39,803 nt of DNA from Sulfurovum sp. (GTDB lineage: Bacteria > Campylobacterota > Campylobacteria > Campylobacterales > Sulfurovaceae), in contig JAUZSQ010000034.1 of assembly GCA_030949325.1 (NCBI GenBank), positions 1 to 39,803 of the forward strand. The letters are read 5' to 3'. Position numbers and translations under genes: made by a program. Positions 1 through 39,803 of this stretch are shown here, one piece after another. Under the pieces are notes generated by a model. That model was not told where the DNA came from. It made no database searches and saw only the letters and a program-made list of their open reading frames with translations. How positions within the stretch are numbered: the stretch's first letter is position 1; the number at the start of each line of letters is the position of its first letter.

Positions 1-285
1 AAAACATGAGCAAGCAAAGTAAAAGCGTGTAGGATTCTGTTGATAGGCTTCTTGAAACTTTTGAGTGCCTGCACGCCAAACCTACTTTGTGCAGTGGCTA
101 CCGCCCACAATGTCAAGAAGGTTAGCTTGAGTTGGAGTTTGGGATTGATGCGTAATCCTAGCGAAGTCCAAGAGGCTACAGGGTCTTTGCGTAGCTGTCC
201 CATTGGGAAAGAGAATTAAAACTCATCGTCTGAGAGGCTTTTGCCAAAGGCAGTGCTTCATGGGGATAAAAAGCAGGGGTATAGC
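1..285 (-). pseudogene. nspC: nspC-like decarboxylase, 3' part (cut by IS, runs off left edge)
   Basis: This is the downstream part of a PLP-dependent carboxynorspermidine/carboxyspermidine decarboxylase-like gene (fold type III). Read leftward from the insertion at 285 it continues the 5' part: SYTPAFYPHEAL, then SFNSLSQWDSYAKTL, then a stop at 178-176. An overlapping frame continues with SLGLRINPKLQL and QSRFGV. The family has the order HTYxPA, FNSxxQ, SLGLRxNP, SRLGV at these places, so one protein has been broken by the IS and at least one frameshift. The rest lies outside the window. An ATG at 203 could start the second frame, but an in-frame stop lies just upstream and I see no ribosome binding site, so I do not treat it as a separate gene. 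Confidence 0.6.
278..285. repeat. Target-site duplication of IS4-type element, left copy
   Basis: GGTATAGC lies directly outside the left inverted repeat and is repeated directly outside the right one at 1682-1689. A ninth base (G) also matches if the outermost IS base is counted as target. Confidence 0.8.
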
Positions 286-1681
286 CATACCTTTCTACAC
301 AACTAACTCAAAAGAAAAAGTGCTATTATACAAGTAAAAGAAAAGACATGAATCAAAGACTAAAAAAAGATATCAGAAGTTAGTAAGAGGTGAGATGAAT
401 ACAAAACATAAAAGCCAAAGTGGAATGAACCTAGTATTGGAGACAGATGGATGGAGTCAAGTCCAAGCGTCATGGCGATTTTATAATAATGAAGAAGTAA
501 CAATTCCCTCACTCAATGACCCCATCATAGAAGAAGTGGTAGAGCAAAGTAACAAAAGAGTAGGTAACTATACCTTGGTAGCCTATGATTGGTCACATTT
601 GGACTATAAAAAGCATACAAAGAAACAGGAACTTGTGACTAAGAATAAGAAAGGGAATGCGAAACAGATAGGGTATGATTTGCAAGGTTCATTGGCAATG
701 GATGAGAAAGGAAATCCTTTGGGTGCCTTAGCCCAAAACTTAGCAACAAGTGAGAAGATATACTCAACTTATGATAGCAATATTGATACAAACTTAACGC
801 ATTTAGAGGAGTTGGTTCAAAGAACTAAATACATACGAGAAAATTATAAGTTTGAAAAAGAGTTGGTTGATATTATTGACAGAGAAGGAGATAGTGTAGC
901 CTTAATGAGAGAGTATGAAGCTAATGGTTGGTGCTATCTGATTCGAGCTAAATCAAATCACAAAGTTTACCTGCCTGACGAGGATAGAGAGGTAAAACAA
1001 GGAGATTTGGCAAAAGAATTAACGCTAGGAAGCTACCTTAAAACCATTAAATATAAAGTGGATAAAAAGATGCAAAAGGTGAAGATATTTGTCAATGAAA
1101 TAGAGGTAAATATACAAAGAGATGCCACCAAATCAGTACTTGACGAGGACGGTAAGCGAAAAACTATCTTCACAGCAGGAGAAAGTATTAAGGCAAGGTT
1201 TGTGGTGGAGAGATTGGTTGATGAAGACAATAATATTGTTGCCCAATGGATGCTTTTTGAGCAATGTTCCCAAAGAGGTCACAGCCACAACTATTGGTAC
1301 TTGGTATTATCATAGATGGAAAATAGAAAGCTATTTCAAACTTTTAAAATCTTCTGGATTTAATCTTGAAAGTTGGCAACAAGAAACTCCAATGGCTCTG
1401 TTTAGAAGACTTCTCGTGGTCTCCTATGCTACATTGTTTGTTTGGAAGATTGAGCGTTCGGAAGAGAAAATGCTCCTGCTGTTAGAAAGTTTTTAGTGCA
1501 ACTCTCAGGACGACTTATTGAAAAGAACAAAGAATTTACAACACCTGCTTTACTATCAGGTCTTTGGGTTTTTATGAAGATGATGAATGTTTTAAAGATC
1601 TACGATGTTGAGGCTCTTTTGCTTTTAAAGAGCAAATCGGATATGATGGGCATGGAACTTTGAGTTGTGTAGAAAGGTATG
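286..1681 (+). mobile_element. IS4-family (IS50/Tn5-like) insertion sequence, ~1.4 kb
   Basis: The element is bounded by perfect 19-bp terminal inverted repeats (CATACCTTTCTACACAACT at 286-304 and its reverse complement at 1663-1681) and flanked by an 8-9 bp direct target duplication. It carries one transposase gene on the plus strand. A 19-bp terminal repeat and 8-9 bp duplication fit the IS50 subgroup of IS4, and the catalytic motifs agree. It sits inside the nspC-like gene: joining the flanks and dropping one duplication copy restores the reading frame (KHSYT then PAFYP). The left end of a second copy begins at 39763. The boundaries are read directly from the sequence; the subgroup is inferred. 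Confidence 0.88.
347..1663 (+). pseudogene. IS4-family DDE transposase, frameshifted
   Basis: The product is a cut-and-paste transposase of about 438 aa when reconstructed. The DDE residues are visible: D in VAYDWSHLDY, D in IIDREGDS (compare DREADI of Tn5), and E in the YREK-type signature YYHRWKIESYFK. The frame breaks in at least three places: near 380-385 (between DIRS and LVRGEMN, if the ATG at 347 is the start), in the T-run at 1254-1258 (one T too many), and in the A-run at 1467-1470 (one A missing before NAPAVRKFLVQLSGR). The tail reads on to TGA 1661-1663, inside the right inverted repeat. The breaks need +1 as well as -1 shifts, so they do not look like programmed -1 frameshifting. 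As sequenced it would be inactive. Confidence 0.85.
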
Positions 1682-1689
1682 GGTATAGC
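1682..1689. repeat. Target-site duplication of IS4-type element, right copy
   Basis: GGTATAGC is identical to 278-285 and lies directly outside the right inverted repeat. Confidence 0.8.
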
Positions 1690-1941
1690 TATGCTTATGT
1701 GCATTTTTTAGGGTCTTATCTAGGGCTAGGGTATGAGAGAGTTCTTCTACATTGCCTACACTCCATCCTGAGAAAACCGATGCTATGAGTGCTAAACCTT
1801 GTGGCTCATGAAAACATTTGAGAGTATAAAGCCATACGATATGATGCTGTTTTCCCAAGGCTTCAAAAATACGTAAATTGGCTTTAAGACGTGCTTCTTG
1901 GAGTACAAAACATGGAGAAGGCAAAAGCTATGCTTAGTCAT
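1682..1941 (-). pseudogene. nspC: nspC-like decarboxylase, 5' part (interrupted by IS)
   Basis: This is the N-terminal part of a fold-type III PLP decarboxylase resembling carboxynorspermidine/carboxyspermidine decarboxylase. That enzyme removes the carboxyl group from carboxy(nor)spermidine in the last step of the alternative spermidine pathway. PSPCFVLQEARLKANL matches the family's start, and the Lys in YTLKCF is the expected PLP-binding position. The natural start is probably ATG at 1941-1939, which would overlap the end of the speE-like gene (ATGACTAA), but one base too many puts it out of frame. The in-frame alternative is TTG at 1924. The reading frame runs into the IS after KHSYT. The position directly after the aminopropyltransferase-like gene supports a polyamine role. 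The family call is fairly secure, but the exact substrate (spermidine or norspermidine) cannot be told. Confidence 0.68.
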
Positions 1942-3450
1942 ACCAGCGATTCCACCCTCTTTGGGAATAATAATAAATTAGTCCATGATTACTAAGCTTA
2001 TTGCTTTTGGACTTCTCTTTTGGCTGTCTTTGTCAAATATTTTCATCGTATTCATCGTTTGGGTATCAATGTATCTGAAACTAGCTTTGGCTGTGATAGT
2101 CTCTAGGGGTAGCTTAAGATGTGATGCCAAGATAAATCCCCATTCTCCAAAACTAGGCACATAGCTATGATAAGGCAATACTTTGAAGTTTGATTCTTCT
2201 AAGGTTTTGGCAATACACCAAAAGGCATCAGGAGAAAAGATAGGAGAAGTCGCTTGTGTGACTATGGCACCCGAACGAGAGAGGTGAGAAGAGAGCAGGT
2301 GATAAAAGGCTTTAGAATAGAGCCTACTGAGCGAAATAGTATTGGGGTCAGGCAGGTCAATAATGATGACATCATAGAGTCTATGAGAATCTTCTATAAA
2401 TTTCCATGCATCTTGATTGAATACGCTAACTTTGGGGCTATCGTAGGCATGGTTATTGAGGGTACTTAGGCGTGGGTGGGTTTTGAAAAGTGTGGTAACT
2501 GCCTCGTCCAAATCTACAAGGGTGATGTGTTTGACCTTGTCATATTTGAGTACTTCGCGTAATGCCAATCCATCACCACCACCAATAATGAGTACTTCTT
2601 CATGGGATTTACTCATATTCATTACAGGATGTACCAAGGACTCATGGTAACGGTGTTCATCAATACTGTCAAACTGTAAAGCACCATTGATATAAAATTG
2701 GATACGTCCTTTGTTGGCTGTGATAATGAGCTTTTGGTAGGGGCTTTGTTTGCTATAAATGATGTTGTTTTGATAGAGTTTTTTTTCTATCATGGAGGTG
2801 AGTGTAGTGGACTTGATAAAACCAAGGATGAGTATGAGAGCAATGATGACAATAGGCAAAAGGTAGCGTTTGCCTAAAATATCTCTAAAGATAAACCATG
2901 CTAGAGTCCCCACCATAAGATTGAGTCCACCAAACAAAAAGGCTGTTTGCATGAGACCTAGCTGAGGTACAAGTACCAAAGGAAAGAGTAACGAAGCGAA
3001 CAATGCCCCAATATAATCTACCGTAAAGACATTGGAAATATTACTCTCCAATGAAAAGCTGTCTTTGAGGATACGGATAATCAAAGGGATTTCTACGCCT
3101 AGCATACTTCCCAAAAGAATCGTAATCAGATACAAAAAGGCATCATAGTTTTCTAAGTACGCAAAGGCATAAAAGAGGATAAAAGCAGAGAATCCACCAA
3201 GTAAAGCAATGGTAAATTGTATGATGATAAAGGTATGTTCAAGTTTGTCTGAGACAAAACGAGAAATCCATGCACCCACACCCATAGAAGACATAAAAAG
3301 CCCAATGACCAAAGAGAAATGGTAAATCGAATCTCCCAAGAGATAAGAAGAGAGCGTTCCTGCGAGGAGTTCATAGACCAAGCCACAAATGGCAATGACA
3401 AATGTCCCAAAAAGGAGTGCTATTTCTTTGTGTTGCATGGTACTTTTCAT
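1934..3450 (-). CDS. Membrane-anchored spermidine synthase-like protein
   Basis: This is a polyamine aminopropyltransferase-family protein with a polytopic N-terminal half (about 6-8 hydrophobic segments, residues 1-220) fused to a SpeE-like catalytic half. Visible motifs are DEHRYHESLVH (polyamine-site region), IIGGGDGLALREVLKY (nucleotide-binding loop), LVDLDEAV, and YDVIIIDLPDPN near the catalytic Asp. Soluble SpeE has an Asp-Ser/Cys-Thr-Asp-Pro stretch here; DLPDP is what I expect of the membrane-anchored branch. The C-terminus is frameshifted near 2000: the shifted frame gives the family-typical ending NKLSNHGLIYYYSQRGWNRW and stops at 1934-1936. The start was chosen at ATG 3450, two bases after the DUF350 stop. 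Known SpeE enzymes use decarboxylated SAM; no AdoMet decarboxylase gene lies in this window. The substrate is unknown. Confidence 0.85.
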
Positions 3451-3451
3451 T

Positions 3452-3649
3452 TTAGCCAATCGCTGAAGAGATAATCATACCCAGTGAGGCGATGATGGAA
3501 GCTAAGACAATAGCAAGGGCGATATTACCCTCTTCTATAATTTGCCTATTGATAGAGAATTTGCTAATGACTTCCATAATAAAAAGGGCTATCAAAAAGA
3601 TACCCAAGCCTAGAAATGTATAGATGAGTGTAGATATAAATGCGTCCAT
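3452..3649 (-). CDS. DUF350 family small membrane protein
   Basis: This 65-aa protein has two hydrophobic helices, about residues 6-27 and 43-64. The stretch IIEEGNIALAIVLASIIASLGM matches the DUF350 core (an Asn followed by a small-residue helix). Many DUF350 proteins have two such repeats; this has one. The gene ends at the start of the speE-like gene and sits in the same transcription unit as DUF4178 genes. DUF350, DUF4178 and SpeE-like genes are known to co-occur in bacterial gene clusters tied to membrane stress or polyamines, but the molecular role is not known. Confidence 0.75.
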   Translation of the reverse strand: MDAFISTLIYTFLGLGIFLIALFIMEVISKFSINRQIIEEGNIALAIVLASIIASLGMIISSAIG

Positions 3650-3665
3650 GTATTGCTCCTAAATG

Positions 3666-3833
3666 TTATTTACCAAAGCTCCACCCACCACTAGAACTGC
3701 GAGAACTAGAATGATGTGTACGGATGCTTTTTTGATTTTCTGAGACTACTTCTTGTAGCCCCACACCTCTATAGGTACTGTATATCGCCCCAATACTTAG
3801 CAAAGAAAAGATAAGAAGTACGACTTTACTCAT
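3666..3833 (-). CDS. Small membrane/secreted protein, Ser/Gly-rich tail
   Basis: This 55-aa product starts at ATG 3833, overlapping the preceding stop (ATGA). It has one N-terminal hydrophobic helix (VVLLIFSLLSIGAIY) followed by a Ser/Gly/Trp tail ending SSSGGWSFGK. It could be a signal-anchored peptide or an exported protein. I recognise no named family; small Gly/Ser-tailed proteins fit the DUF350-DUF4178 neighbourhood. The overlaps on both sides favour a real gene. Confidence 0.6.
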   Translation of the reverse strand: MSKVVLLIFSLLSIGAIYSTYRGVGLQEVVSENQKSIRTHHSSSRSSSGGWSFGK

Positions 3834-4311
3834 GCATCCTCCTTCTTTTTGAAATAATAATAGATTCCAAATGTCCCAAAGATAAGCAGAGCCGATAAGC
3901 CAAATAGCATATAAAATATCACCGCAGGAATGACAAGAAAGACCACTTTCATAATCTTTCCATTTCCTGCTACATACGGTAACCATAATACCAAGAGCAA
4001 GACGATAATAAGAGGGATGAGGTAATTGTTACGAATGACTTGCTGTTGTATTTTTATGCTAGAGGCTATCTGATTGGCTTGTTTATCGGCTATAAGTTTG
4101 TATGTTCCTTTGTCCAAATTGAGATAGATAGTAAGTGAGACTGCGTAAGGTATCCATGTCTTTTTGATATGACTTTGGGTAAAAAATACTGGTTTCCATG
4201 CATCCTCCCAAACAACTACACACTTCCCGATAAATGCACTAAAAATTAGCATAAATGAAAGAAAAGAAGTAATAAGAGACTCACTCAACAAAAGCAATGT
4301 ATTGAGTGAAA
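3830..4311 (-). pseudogene. C-terminal part of interrupted DUF4178 protein (membrane)
   Basis: I read this as the distal part of the DUF4178 gene that begins at 5431, separated from it by an inserted element (4312-4559). It has the stretch LTIYLNLDKGTYKLIADK, which resembles the G-Y-x-L extracytoplasmic domain at the end of large DUF4178 proteins. Two membrane helices follow (IPLIIVLLLVLWLPYVAG and VVFLVIPAVIFYMLFGL) and then a Lys-rich tail. The proximal part also ends in a membrane helix. The assignment to one original gene is inferred from topology and context. An alternative is a separate small membrane protein starting at ATG 4297, though its first 15 residues look like random extension. 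Confidence 0.55.
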
Positions 4312-4559
4312 TAAATACCGTAAGAGGTAAAAGACGATACTAAAAAAACTTTATAGAACTCTTAAACTACTACGCAATCAAGTATGCAAGAAGAGCTGAT
4401 TTAACGCCAGAAATAAGATTAGATATTTCCATCAAGCATATGAAGCACAAAAGCAAAAGAGTATGGAGCTACCACAGAATTAGCTGTAGAGTACAACGTT
4501 TCTAGAGATTGTCTATATGCTCATAGAGAGATTACAACGTTTACTCCCTTTGGTATTTA
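4312..4559 (+). mobile_element. 248-bp inverted-repeat element with transposase-like remnant
   Basis: The ends form an imperfect inverted repeat: TAAATACC at 4312-4319 pairs with GGTATTTA at 4552-4559, and the similarity extends inward (taaataccgtaagaggtaaa against the reverse complement taaataccaaagggagtaaa). Inside, the plus strand encodes scraps such as KEYGATTELAVEYNVSRDCLY, which look like the helix-turn-helix start of a transposase, broken by frameshifts. It separates the two halves of a DUF4178 gene. I see no clear target duplication. It is best read as an internally deleted IS or MITE-like derivative. Confidence 0.5.
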
Positions 4560-5431
4560 CTGCATATCAAAAATGCAGAAGAATTCACAGTAAAGGAGGC
4601 TTCATGATGGCTGTTATACGTCGCTTCGTAGATAGTCGTATGATAAAACAAAGAAGCAAGAGAAAGAATAGTAAGTATGAGTGGCAATAGCATAAAATAC
4701 TTTTGCAAGAGTGTGACTTTGTGATTTTCTTCTTCTATATCGTCTGTGACCCTTGCATTTTTATGTGTTTGACTCGCCTTAGTATAATCAAGATTAAAGG
4801 CATGATAAATATCTTCTTTTCTCACCTTTTGTGTATGAAAGACTTCTATTTCATTGATAGTCTTTTCTATGCTTAGGCTTTGGTGGCGTACACCCTTGTA
4901 GTCCCAACAGGTAAATTTGTCTCCAAACTTGGCTACCCAATTGAGTTCCCCTTCGACATAATCAATATATGCCATATACGAGCTGTCATTAAGCATATAA
5001 TGACCTTTTTGGTAAAAGACCATCTTGGGTTGCTTGGTTTGCCATGAAAATAGGTCAAAATTACGTACCTTGATAGAAAACGAAATCTCACCCTCGTCAT
5101 AGACCAACCACGCATAGCCATGTGTAGGAGAATAGAGGAAAAACTCATTCCATTCTTCGGAAGGAAACTCAGCCGTACGGTAGGTCACCCAACCAATAAT
5201 CGTCCACTCTACCCCTTTGATATTGCCCCTCATCCCAATAGTAAATGGGGCTAAGGGACGTTTGACTTTATTGAACGTAGAGAGGACTTTGTAGGCATCG
5301 TTGAGGTCAAGTACACAGTGACAATATTCACAAGTAATGGTACTAACTCTACCACCACCGAGTATATCAAGAGGAGCAGCACATTGGGTACACTTAATAG
5401 CCGAGGTTGTAGTACTAGGAGTGTCAGACAT
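4541..5431 (-). pseudogene. DUF4178 protein, N-terminal part with zinc ribbon (interrupted)
   Basis: The protein begins with a zinc ribbon (CTQCAAPLD ... CEYCHCVLD; two CxxC pairs), followed by a DUF4178 domain of about 150 residues with the usual Trp/Tyr-rich strands (VEWTIIGWVTYR, EWNEFFLYSPTHGYAWLVYDEGE). After a charged stretch comes a membrane helix (YFMLLPLILTILSLASLFY). The start at ATG 5431 (MSDTPS) lies one base after the preceding stop. The last dozen or so residues come from the inserted element. DUF4178 has no established biochemical function; in clusters with DUF350 and SpeE-like genes it is thought to act at the membrane. Confidence 0.75.
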
Positions 5432-5432
5432 C

Positions 5433-6053
5433 TTAGCCCATTTCTTTAATATCAAAAAGGCTAATCCACTTACCTTGATAGGCTTCTAAGCCATCATTTG
5501 CATTTTCTAGGGTCATGAGCTGTGCATCTTTGCCAGAGAGATGTGCATAAGCATACGCAGAACCTTTGGATACATATTTGGGTAAGCTTCCTTCAAATCC
5601 TTCACAAGTAGCCGTGCCTAGTTCTGTGACCAACCATGCATCCCAAAGGATTTGACCCACGACTAGGCTACTCCATTCTATAGGCTTAGAGTCTAGTGTT
5701 ATAGATTGCTCCAATACCACATCACCTTCATCTATACTCATCCAATATTCTTTATTGGCACTGTCTTTGAGCCACCATTCTTCCCAAAATCCTCGTCCAT
5801 AAGAGTAACGTATCTTACCCAAAGGAAGATACTGCTTTTGGGCATACATAAAAGGAATATTGAGATGTATGATAGAAATCTCAGGAGACAAAACAGAACT
5901 GTCTCCTGCCAATCGTGTCGCATCATTTTCCAAAAAAATTGTCGATTTACAAGAATCACAGAGCACAAGCTTCACATGTGTAAAATGAAGAGCCAAAGAA
6001 TCACCACATTGAGGACAGTTAAAATGTTTTTCTACAGTAAACGTATTTGACAT
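5433..6053 (-). CDS. DUF4178 protein with zinc ribbon
   Basis: This 206-aa, apparently soluble protein opens with a zinc ribbon (FNCPQCGDS ... LVLCDSCKSTIF), followed by a DUF4178 domain (LPLGKIRYSYGRGFWEEWWL, EYWMSIDEGDVVLEQS). It is the first gene of the minus-strand cluster and is followed by a second, membrane-attached DUF4178 protein one base away, suggesting translational coupling and perhaps a heteromeric pair. The ATG at 6053 follows a roughly 120-bp gap to the next gene, so a promoter is expected at about 6054-6120, though I cannot identify one firmly. Function unknown. Confidence 0.75.
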   Translation of the reverse strand: MSNTFTVEKHFNCPQCGDSLALHFTHVKLVLCDSCKSTIFLENDATRLAGDSSVLSPEISIIHLNIPFMYAQKQYLPLGKIRYSYGRGFWEEWWLKDSANKEYWMSIDEGDVVLEQSITLDSKPIEWSSLVVGQILWDAWLVTELGTATCEGFEGSLPKYVSKGSAYAYAHLSGKDAQLMTLENANDGLEAYQGKWISLFDIKEMG

Positions 6054-39762: not shown

Positions 39763-39803
39763 CATACCTTTCTACACAACCAACCTAAAAGAAAAAGTGC
39801 TAT
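39763..39803 (+). mobile_element. Left end of second IS4-type element copy (runs off window)
   Basis: Starting at 39763 the sequence repeats the left end of the IS at 286 (same 18 bases, then 38 of 41 positions identical up to the window edge). It is in the same orientation as the first copy and inserted into the ISAzo13-like transposase gene. Confidence 0.78.

What the first reader, a model, noticed from the sequence alone, without database searches (positions are those of the whole stretch)
1682..6053. DUF4178-DUF350-membrane SpeE-NspC gene set: candidate membrane polyamine system
Two zinc-ribbon DUF4178 proteins, a 55-aa membrane peptide, a one-repeat DUF350 protein, a membrane-anchored aminopropyltransferase-like enzyme and an NspC-like decarboxylase are packed with overlaps or gaps of a few bases. 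DUF350, DUF4178 and SpeE-like genes are known to cluster in other bacteria, usually with an AdoMet decarboxylase. Here the decarboxylase is of the NspC type instead. This combination may modify polyamines at the membrane, for example in response to envelope stress.
Basis: partly seen in the sequence, partly recalled or inferred. Interest (0 to 1): 0.72.

Follow-up and report, generated by a model that had tools for sequence, protein, structure and literature searches.

The report
Polyamine enzyme pair lacking usual decarboxylase
In Sulfurovum-like bacteria that lack the usual enzyme for making the aminopropyl donor, a membrane aminopropyl-transferring enzyme sits beside an unusual vitamin-B6-type decarboxylase that may stand in for the missing step.

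Summary
The gene set is real, but this copy is damaged: the second DUF4178 gene is split by an insertion and the NspC-like gene is cut by an IS4-like element. Intact copies exist in relatives. Across 175 genomes of the family, membrane SpeE occurs in 30. A distinct NspC-like clade ("NspC2", below the NspC cut-off) occurs in 22. In 21 of these 22 it lies downstream of SpeE on the same contig (19 directly, two with other genes between); the 22nd begins at a contig end. The tight unit is SpeE-NspC2; DUF350 and DUF4178 are frequent but optional. AdoMet decarboxylase (SpeD, PF02675) was found in 0 of 175, although SpeE keeps the donor-site residues I could match. Gammaproteobacterial relatives with this SpeE have SpeD in 8 of 9 and no NspC nearby. 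Best reading: a SpeD-bypass aminopropylation module in which NspC2 does the decarboxylation, on AdoMet or on the transferred aminocarboxypropyl product, as in microcin C maturation. Shown: linkage, SpeD absence, conserved residues, one NspC2 clade. Inferred: chemistry, substrates, membrane role. Weak point: 8 SpeE genomes have neither SpeD nor NspC2. New variant of a known operon type.

The parts
5433..6053 (-). DUF4178-A, 206 aa, zinc-ribbon (CPQC...CDSC) protein, first gene of the set
   Evidence: Pfam PF13785 44 bits, cut-off 25; 62% identical to the L015 copy
4541..5455 (-). N-terminal piece of DUF4178-B (zinc ribbon plus DUF4178), cut off by an insertion
   Evidence: PF13785 69.6 bits; matches residues 2-289 of the 442-aa relative in L015
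4298..4540 (.). Stretch between the two DUF4178-B pieces: an insertion, bounded by imperfect inverted repeats 4307-4331/4540-4564
   Evidence: inverted repeat 25 nt, 72%; no second copy in the window or in four fetched stretches of the own genome
3830..4297 (-). C-terminal piece of DUF4178-B with hydrophobic segments
   Evidence: 43% identical to residues 319-431 of the L015 protein; hydropathy of the L015 copy
3666..3833 (-). 55-aa peptide: one N-terminal hydrophobic segment and a Gly/Ser-rich tail ending GK
   Evidence: no Pfam family; aligned with copies in L015, L018, L017, L016, 10 invariant columns of five sequences; hydropathy of the L015 copy
3452..3649 (-). DUF350, one repeat, 65 aa, hydrophobic
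   Evidence: PF03994 41.5 bits, cut-off 26; hydropathy of the L015 copy
1978..3459 (-). Membrane SpeE: hydrophobic N-terminal half plus aminopropyltransferase domain, 493 aa
   Evidence: NF002956 622 bits, cut-off 472; PF01564 140 bits; catalytic and donor residues invariant in 35 of 35 aligned proteins
1688..1924 (-). N-terminal piece of the NspC2 (NspC-like decarboxylase) gene, cut by the IS element
   Evidence: TIGR01047 29.6-32 bits; 52% identical to residues 13-91 of L015 NspC2
22..288 (-). Further pieces of the same NspC2 gene beyond the IS element, towards the contig end
   Evidence: DNA match, 91.8%, to C95 1364-1620; tblastn pieces of L015 NspC2 residues 85-119 and 125-137
271..1696 (+). 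IS4-like element inside NspC2, transposase itself split over two frames (395-1315, 1122-1496)
   Evidence: 34-base inverted ends, 88%; NF033590 46.8 bits, below its cut-off of 160; ORFs

Best explanation
The set is a membrane-bound aminopropylation module that works without SpeD. SpeE, embedded in the membrane by its hydrophobic N-terminal half, transfers an aminopropyl group to an acceptor amine at or near the membrane. NspC2, a PLP decarboxylase encoded by an overlapping gene, does the decarboxylation that SpeD does elsewhere. Preferred order by a narrow margin (route b): NspC2 decarboxylates AdoMet to dcAdoMet, which SpeE uses; the sulfonium of AdoMet sits where the secondary amine of carboxyspermidine sits, so an NspC-type enzyme mainly has to make room for the adenosyl group. 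Alternative order within the same module (route a): SpeE transfers the aminocarboxypropyl group of AdoMet and NspC2 then removes the carboxylate. DUF350, DUF4178 and the small peptide are optional partners. Shown: linkage, gene order, SpeD absence by PF02675, residue conservation, one NspC2 clade. Inferred: both activities, their order, the acceptor, and membrane placement beyond hydropathy.
For: Linkage: NspC2-class hits (482 bits or more; every other listed NspC hit 364 or less) in 21 of 175 family genomes plus a contig-cut copy in G427 (91% identical to the G425 NspC2) = 22. SpeE lies upstream on the same contig in 21 of 22; taking the first possible start codon, the genes overlap by 8-56 bases in 18 of 20 loci measured, and in the other two foreign genes lie between. 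Public proteins: of the best 120 NspC2 relatives (of 1103) 25 share an exact longest-contig length with one of the best 120 SpeE relatives (of 7966), against a mean of 0.9 for shifted lengths. SpeE and NspC2 distances correlate, r 0.87, 0 of 2000 permutations, 17 loci (shared vertical descent would also do this). SpeD in 0 of 175, and in 0 of the 90 best-quality genomes; in 8 of 9 SpeE-bearing gammaproteobacterial genomes, whose fetched SpeE loci hold no NspC. SpeE keeps His269, Asp293 and Asp365 in 35 of 35, which I match to the residues that hold dcAdoMet's amine in spermidine synthases, Asp293 being the one assumed to repel SAM's carboxyl (PMC3725402, PMC4356361, passages). NspC2 keeps the PLP Lys in 136 of 137 (one gap) and His170, Glu237, Asp276, Cys306, Tyr335 in 137 of 137 rows, 134 distinct (roles from PMC11866407, passages). 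Precedent: MccD/MccE (PMC10491745, passages).
Against: Eight of 30 SpeE genomes have no NspC2-class hit and no SpeD, among them three on the early branch rated 99-100% complete (G005, G055, G333); in one more (G336) the contig end hides the slot. For route b: NspC2 keeps Asp276, which in CASDC contacts the distal amine that AdoMet lacks, and two of its fixed differences near that Asp (positions 270, 275) are shared with the S. meliloti putative carboxynorspermidine decarboxylase 3mt1, so they do not show a new substrate. For route a: SpeE keeps the Asp assumed to repel AdoMet's carboxylate. Two CASDC pocket residues, Cys173 and Glu240, vary in NspC2, against both a plain CASDC and any firm claim. 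No activity has been measured. Only PF02675 was searched, so another type of AdoMet decarboxylase could be missed.
Confidence: 0.5

Rival explanations
1. Route a alone: SpeE is an AdoMet-dependent 3-amino-3-carboxypropyl transferase and NspC2 (or canonical NspC where NspC2 is missing) trims the product, as first proposed for MccD/MccE.
For: NspC2 keeps the PLP and catalytic residues of carboxyspermidine decarboxylase including distal-amine Asp276, 137 of 137. NspC2 was found without SpeE in 0 of the 21 NspC2 genomes where the upstream side can be seen, while SpeE occurs without NspC2 in 8 of 30 SpeE genomes, as expected if NspC2 processes SpeE's product and canonical NspC can do so too; with putrescine as acceptor the product would be carboxyspermidine, its normal substrate. 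In vitro precedent MccD then MccE, reverse order not excluded (PMC10491745, passages).
Against: SpeE keeps the dcAdoMet-type donor residues in 35 of 35, the same in SpeD-bearing gammas; the plant enzyme that evolved from spermidine synthase to use SAM changed this Asp (PMC3725402, passages).
Confidence: 0.24
2. NspC2 is simply a second carboxyspermidine-type decarboxylase that makes a polyamine (for example a longer one) from a CASDH product; it sits beside SpeE because both belong to polyamine metabolism, and SpeE's donor is unexplained.
For: Catalytic residues match CASDC. The closest solved structures are 3n29 and 9eaf. A CASDH-like gene (PF03435, 91 bits or more) is present in 24 of 31 SpeE/NspC2 genomes; the one such protein compared with the PDB matches 8deb, carboxyspermidine dehydrogenase, at 541 bits, below three chains deposited as saccharopine dehydrogenase (551-665 bits). 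Ten positions separate NspC2 from seven canonical NspC of the family; two lie next to the amine-binding Asp and could tune chain length.
Against: Does not explain why NspC2 goes with SpeE and not with CASDH, nor how SpeE works without dcAdoMet.
Confidence: 0.26
3. Membrane SpeE is not a working aminopropyltransferase here but a polyamine- or AdoMet-binding sensor for the DUF350/DUF4178 membrane proteins.
For: Kept in 8 genomes without any dcAdoMet route found here; in G341/G342 a histidine kinase (Pfam, G342 only) and a response-regulator-like gene (by eye) take the NspC2 slot.
Against: Catalytic signature invariant in 35 of 35, more than a binding role needs.
Confidence: 0.15
4. Assembly or binning artefact of the window's MAG.
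For: Two near-copies of the locus end (C34, C95) with many frame breaks in C95; contamination estimate 4.36%.
Against: SpeE and NspC2 lie together in 20 other genomes, one of them a named public MAG.
Confidence: 0.02

Closest known systems
CesT/Tir-PspA / 7TM-spermine-synthase / DUF350 / DUF4178 operon (PMC11237479, passages)
   Same: Membrane SpeE with DUF350 and DUF4178 neighbours
   Different: Here a PLP decarboxylase (NspC2) follows SpeE; DUF350 has one repeat (8TM there); a small peptide here, a lipoprotein there, relation not tested; PspA and CesT were not searched for with profiles
SpeD/SpeE canonical spermidine pathway
   Same: SpeE domain with intact donor and acceptor residues
   Different: No SpeD found in 175 genomes; SpeE carries a membrane half; spermidine itself is probably made by CASDH plus canonical NspC
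Carboxy(nor)spermidine decarboxylase NspC (TIGR01047; 3n29, 9eaf)
   Same: Fold and PLP/catalytic residues; 31-34% identity to those two solved enzymes
   Different: Below the equivalog cut-off (252-310 against 409 bits), own clade, Cys173 and Glu240 variable, linked to SpeE
Microcin C aminopropylation, MccD + MccE N-terminal domain (PMC10491745, PMC8503589, passages)
   Same: Logic: SAM-using transferase plus an alanine-racemase-fold PLP decarboxylase; order of steps not settled there either
   Different: Peptide-nucleotide substrate; MccD was not compared with SpeE here; no membrane part described in the passages read

Membership tests
NspC equivalog (TIGR01047) | Score over the curated cut-off 409.05 | tested here: not met
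   4 of 4 NspC2 proteins tested score 252-310; canonical NspC scores 528-558 in 7 of 7 family genomes tested
NspC equivalog (TIGR01047) | PLP Lys, His170, Glu237, Cys306, Tyr335, distal-amine Asp276 (9eaf numbering) | tested here: met
   136-137 of 137 rows at each, the Lys column with one gap (residue roles from PMC11866407, passages)
NspC equivalog (TIGR01047) | Cys173 and Glu240 of the PLP phosphate site | tested here: not met
   Cys173 in 96 of 137 (Phe 36, Tyr 5); Glu240 in 67 of 137 (Ser 60, Thr 6); both invariant in 7 of 7 canonical NspC
NspC equivalog (TIGR01047) | Decarboxylates carboxy(nor)spermidine | not testable with these tools
   needs purified enzyme
Membrane polyamine aminopropyltransferase PRK03612 (NF002956) | Score over cut-off 472 | tested here: met
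   622, 646 and 629.5 bits, 3 of 3 proteins tested
Membrane polyamine aminopropyltransferase PRK03612 (NF002956) | Donor and acceptor catalytic residues | tested here: met
   YHE, GGGDG, D-x-P-D-P, Gln399, Tyr427 invariant in 35 of 35
SpeD-dependent aminopropylation | AdoMet decarboxylase in the genome | tested here: not met
   PF02675 in 0 of 175 family genomes; the same search rings in 8 of 14 control genomes. PF01536 not searched
PSP-linked SpeE/DUF350/DUF4178 operon (PMC11237479) | Membrane SpeE with DUF350 and DUF4178 | tested here: met
   Window and L015; DUF350 adjacent in 22 of 30, DUF4178 in the fetched cluster in 16 of 30 SpeE genomes
PSP-linked SpeE/DUF350/DUF4178 operon (PMC11237479) | CesT/Tir-PspA pair in the operon | not tested
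   No PspA or CesT profile was run on these loci; of 9 neighbour proteins scanned, band-7 was found in two gamma loci and TelA in one
MccD/MccE-type aminopropylation | Alanine-racemase-fold PLP decarboxylase encoded beside a SAM-fold transferase | tested here: met
   Fold match of the NspC2 model and adjacency to SpeE; this is likeness of logic
MccD/MccE-type aminopropylation | Homology to MccD and MccE; peptide-nucleotide substrate | not tested
   No Mcc sequence was fetched or compared

The most novel reading that the evidence does not exclude
NspC2 is a PLP-dependent AdoMet decarboxylase that arose from the carboxyspermidine decarboxylase family and took over SpeD's role when a membrane aminopropyltransferase entered a lineage without SpeD.
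Probability: 0.25. Interest if true: 0.85.

Novelty: new variant of a known kind. Interest (0 to 1): 0.62.

Why it matters
Aminopropyltransferases in bacteria without AdoMet decarboxylase are a puzzle: the enzyme seems to lack its donor. This linkage gives a concrete, cheap test of where the aminopropyl group comes from. If NspC2 decarboxylates AdoMet or a SpeE product, it is a second, unrelated solution to the SpeD step, parallel to microcin C maturation but in what looks like a general membrane system, and it would give the DUF350/DUF4178/SpeE operons a first defined chemistry.

Tried and rejected
In the order-wide SpeE search (12 of 298 genomes) 7 hits outside the family are short SpeE-like proteins (281-314 aa frames, 30-34% identity); they were left out, and SpeD was not sought in those genomes. 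A first comparison of NspC1 and NspC2 residues took wrong NspC1 frames from some loci; it was redone. The C98 and C112 hits of TIGR01047 in the own genome showed no similarity to the window and were not followed. Considered and rejected: artefact; chance adjacency; a canonical NspC operon (NspC2 fails the cut-off). I could not separate route a from route b.

One search shows 3mt1 shares the states at 270 and 275, 9eaf shares 332, and at 45 it is canonical NspC that differs from the solved enzymes; that argument is withdrawn, and the odds of route b were lowered slightly (novel case 0.27 to 0.25; two rivals raised by 0.01-0.02).

Literature: none of the titles and abstract openings listed shows an SpeE-NspC pair; several were capped lists (20 of 73, 20 of 71 in 41, 20 of 613 in 78, 15 of 111 in 87, 12 of 28 in 90). 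PMC2628731 (passages) notes speE and nspC in Nautilia profundicola under distant gene numbers. PMC11107197 (one passage), PMC10407285 (passages) and PMC11999265 (passages) gave no such pair in what I saw. The library is open-licence PMC only; Li et al. 2019 (Biochem J 476:2579), a likely place, is not held.

Rows dropped: G336 (contig ends inside SpeE) cannot be scored for NspC2 and is named as such in the 30. 26 of 30 family SpeE proteins entered the alignment and tree (19 linked, 7 unlinked); G339, G405, G431 and G336 are fragments and were left out. 17 of 22 NspC2 proteins entered the distance test and the tree; G000, G427, G339, G405 and G426 did not. Of the public relatives only the best 120 lists were used.


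Full report
WHAT IS THERE. The window is a whole contig (C34, 39803 bases) of a 2.53 Mb, 115-contig genome assembly, 93.4% complete and 4.4% contaminated. On the minus strand, 6053 down to 22, stand DUF4178-A, DUF4178-B, a 55-aa peptide, a one-repeat DUF350, a membrane SpeE and an NspC-like decarboxylase. Two genes are broken. DUF4178-B is split by an insertion; 243 bases lie between its two ORFs, bounded by imperfect inverted repeats. The NspC-like gene is cut by an IS4-like element with 34-base inverted ends, whose transposase is itself split over two frames. Contig C95 holds a near-copy of the SpeE-NspC end without the element, 92.9% alike and with many frame breaks. I treat the window's copy as damaged and draw conclusions from relatives.

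INTACT RELATIVES. L015 (uncultured Sulfurovum sp. HLG_WM_MAG_01) carries all six genes in the same order, uninterrupted: DUF4178-A 206 aa, DUF4178-B 442 aa, 52-aa peptide, DUF350, SpeE 505 aa, NspC-like 363 aa.

FAMILY SURVEY. SpeE was sought in 175 genomes of the family: 30 have it at E 1e-60 or better. An NspC2 profile (A1) was run on the same 175: 21 genomes have a hit of 482 bits or more, and the next hit scores 364. G427 has a contig-cut copy that is closest to NspC2 proteins, 91% to G425, and 26-33% to canonical ones, giving 22. In 21 of 22 SpeE lies upstream on the same contig and strand: directly adjacent in 19, counting the window's own damaged pair; with a Schlafen/AlbA-type gene between in G425, and with a DNA methylase-like gene and a partner (by eye) between in G445. 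In G426, the 22nd, NspC2 begins at base 176 of its contig and no SpeE was found. Taking the first possible start codon, the two frames overlap by 8-56 bases in 18 of 20 loci measured. Conversely, of 30 SpeE genomes 21 have NspC2, 8 do not (G005, G055, G333, G341, G342, G418, G431, G439) and 1 cannot be told (G336). DUF350 is adjacent to SpeE in 22 of 30; DUF4178 is in the fetched cluster in 16 of 30; G223 and G162 have the SpeE-NspC2 pair with neither. So the pair is the tight unit. Public proteins agree: 25 of the best 120 NspC2 relatives have exactly the same longest-contig length as one of the best 120 SpeE relatives, against a mean of 0.9 (maximum 4) for shifted lengths.

NO SPED FOUND. 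PF02675 was found in 0 of 175 family genomes, 0 of 90 among those at least 90% complete and at most 5% contaminated, while the same search rang in 8 of 14 control genomes. In 369 genomes drawn from the class of the Thiotrichaceae MAG G299, membrane SpeE occurs in 8 at E 1e-80 or better; with G300 added, SpeD is present in 8 of 9 and missing in G589. No NspC homologue was labelled anywhere in the ten fetched gamma SpeE loci, one of them a second SpeE; two of these loci are short contigs (4.7 and 3.7 kb). In G299 that second SpeE stands two genes from SpeD. The canonical route is present in the family: canonical NspC scores 528-558 bits in 7 of 7 family genomes tested, and a CASDH-like gene of 91 bits or more is present in 24 of 31 SpeE/NspC2 genomes. 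One such protein matches carboxyspermidine dehydrogenase 8deb at 541 bits, below three chains deposited as saccharopine dehydrogenase. SpeE-NspC2 is therefore most likely an additional system.

THE ENZYMES. SpeE: in 35 aligned proteins (19 linked, 7 unlinked, 9 gamma) the YHE motif, GGGDG, D-x-P-D-P, Gln399 and Tyr427 never vary. [quoted passage not shown] NspC2, 137 rows (134 distinct): PLP Lys 136 (one gap); His170, Glu237, Asp276, Cys306 and Tyr335 137; but Cys173 only 96 and Glu240 only 67 (roles from PMC11866407, passages). Ten positions separate NspC2 from seven canonical NspC of the family. Two (270, 275) lie on the specificity helix that carries Asp276, but 3mt1 (S. meliloti) has the NspC2 states there; at 332 9eaf has the NspC2 state, and at 45 it is canonical NspC that differs from the solved enzymes. 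These sites therefore do not prove a new substrate. NspC2 fails the NspC cut-off (252-310 against 409; 4 of 4). The AlphaFold2 model (mean pLDDT 85.4, with a stretch under 50 at 345-353) is closest to 3n29 and 9eaf, TM 0.81-0.85.

EVOLUTION. In the SpeE tree (midpoint root) the gamma sequences lie outside; three early-branching family members (G333, G005, G055) are unlinked; all 19 linked sequences and 4 unlinked ones form one clade, support 100/99. One gain of NspC2 and three losses fit the four changes counted. NspC2 is one clade, 100/99, on a long stem (1.23), apart from canonical NspC; only three outside sequences were used and the tool warns of long branches. SpeE and NspC2 distances correlate, r 0.87, 0 of 2000 permutations, 17 loci, which ordinary shared descent would also give.

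MECHANISM. Established chemistry: dcAdoMet, made by SpeD, is the donor of aminopropyltransferases (PMC10407285, passages). Microcin C shows a second way: MccD and the PLP domain of MccE add an aminopropyl group, with either order of steps not excluded (PMC10491745, passages; also PMC8503589, passages). SpeE-NspC2 has the same logic. I lean slightly to NspC2 acting on AdoMet (route b), because SpeE's donor residues are the same as in SpeD-bearing gammas, including the Asp thought to exclude AdoMet. Against that stand Asp276, kept in every NspC2 row, and the 8 SpeE genomes without NspC2 and SpeD, which fit route a with canonical NspC more easily. Given the module, I put route b at about 0.52 and route a at 0.48; the separate route-a rival overlaps the module. 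The acceptor is unknown.

NOVELTY. The DUF350/DUF4178/membrane-SpeE operon is in print (PMC11237479, passages). The SpeE-NspC2 pair and its tie to a family without SpeD did not show in the listings named under Tried and rejected. New variant of a known kind, with a testable and possibly new enzyme activity.

Noticed in passing
window 39763-39803 (compare 286-326): The right end of the contig stops inside 41 bases of a second copy of the IS4-like element (92.7%), which may explain the contig break there.
   Followed up: partly
L011 (C95) 1-1620 against window 3031-22: A second contig repeats the SpeE tail and NspC2 at 92.9% identity without the IS but with many frame breaks, then runs on to a thioredoxin-like gene and purH (by eye): strain variants or an error-rich contig end.
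   Followed up: partly
L087 9461-10866 and L097 2014-3422 (G342, G341): A histidine kinase and response-regulator pair overlaps SpeE where NspC2 sits in relatives (kinase by Pfam in L087, the rest by eye).
   Followed up: partly
L092 10593-12793 (G434): DUF4178-A, DUF4178-B and the small peptide stand downstream of NspC2 instead of upstream of DUF350.
   Followed up: no
L089 (G445), between SpeE and NspC2: A DNA cytosine methylase-like gene and a likely restriction partner (named by eye) lie between SpeE and NspC2.
   Followed up: no
L119 and L120 (gammaproteobacteria): Long DUF4178-B-like proteins (658 and 508 aa) and a flavin amine-oxidase-like gene (Pfam in L119, by eye in L120) next to membrane SpeE.
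   Followed up: partly
L117 and L118 (gammaproteobacteria): Band-7 genes close to the DUF4178-DUF350-SpeE set; in L118 also TelA and a Halogen_Hydrol (PF10112) gene.
   Followed up: partly
L116 (G299): A second membrane SpeE lies with SpeD, a GNAT-like gene and a lipoprotein-like gene with a Ser/Gly tail (by eye); similar genes precede SpeE in L122 and L123.
   Followed up: partly
window 3666-3833 and alignment A4: The small peptide family has no Pfam match, one N-terminal hydrophobic segment and an invariant GK end in five sequences, and is shared between Sulfurovum MAGs and gammaproteobacterial MAGs.
   Followed up: partly
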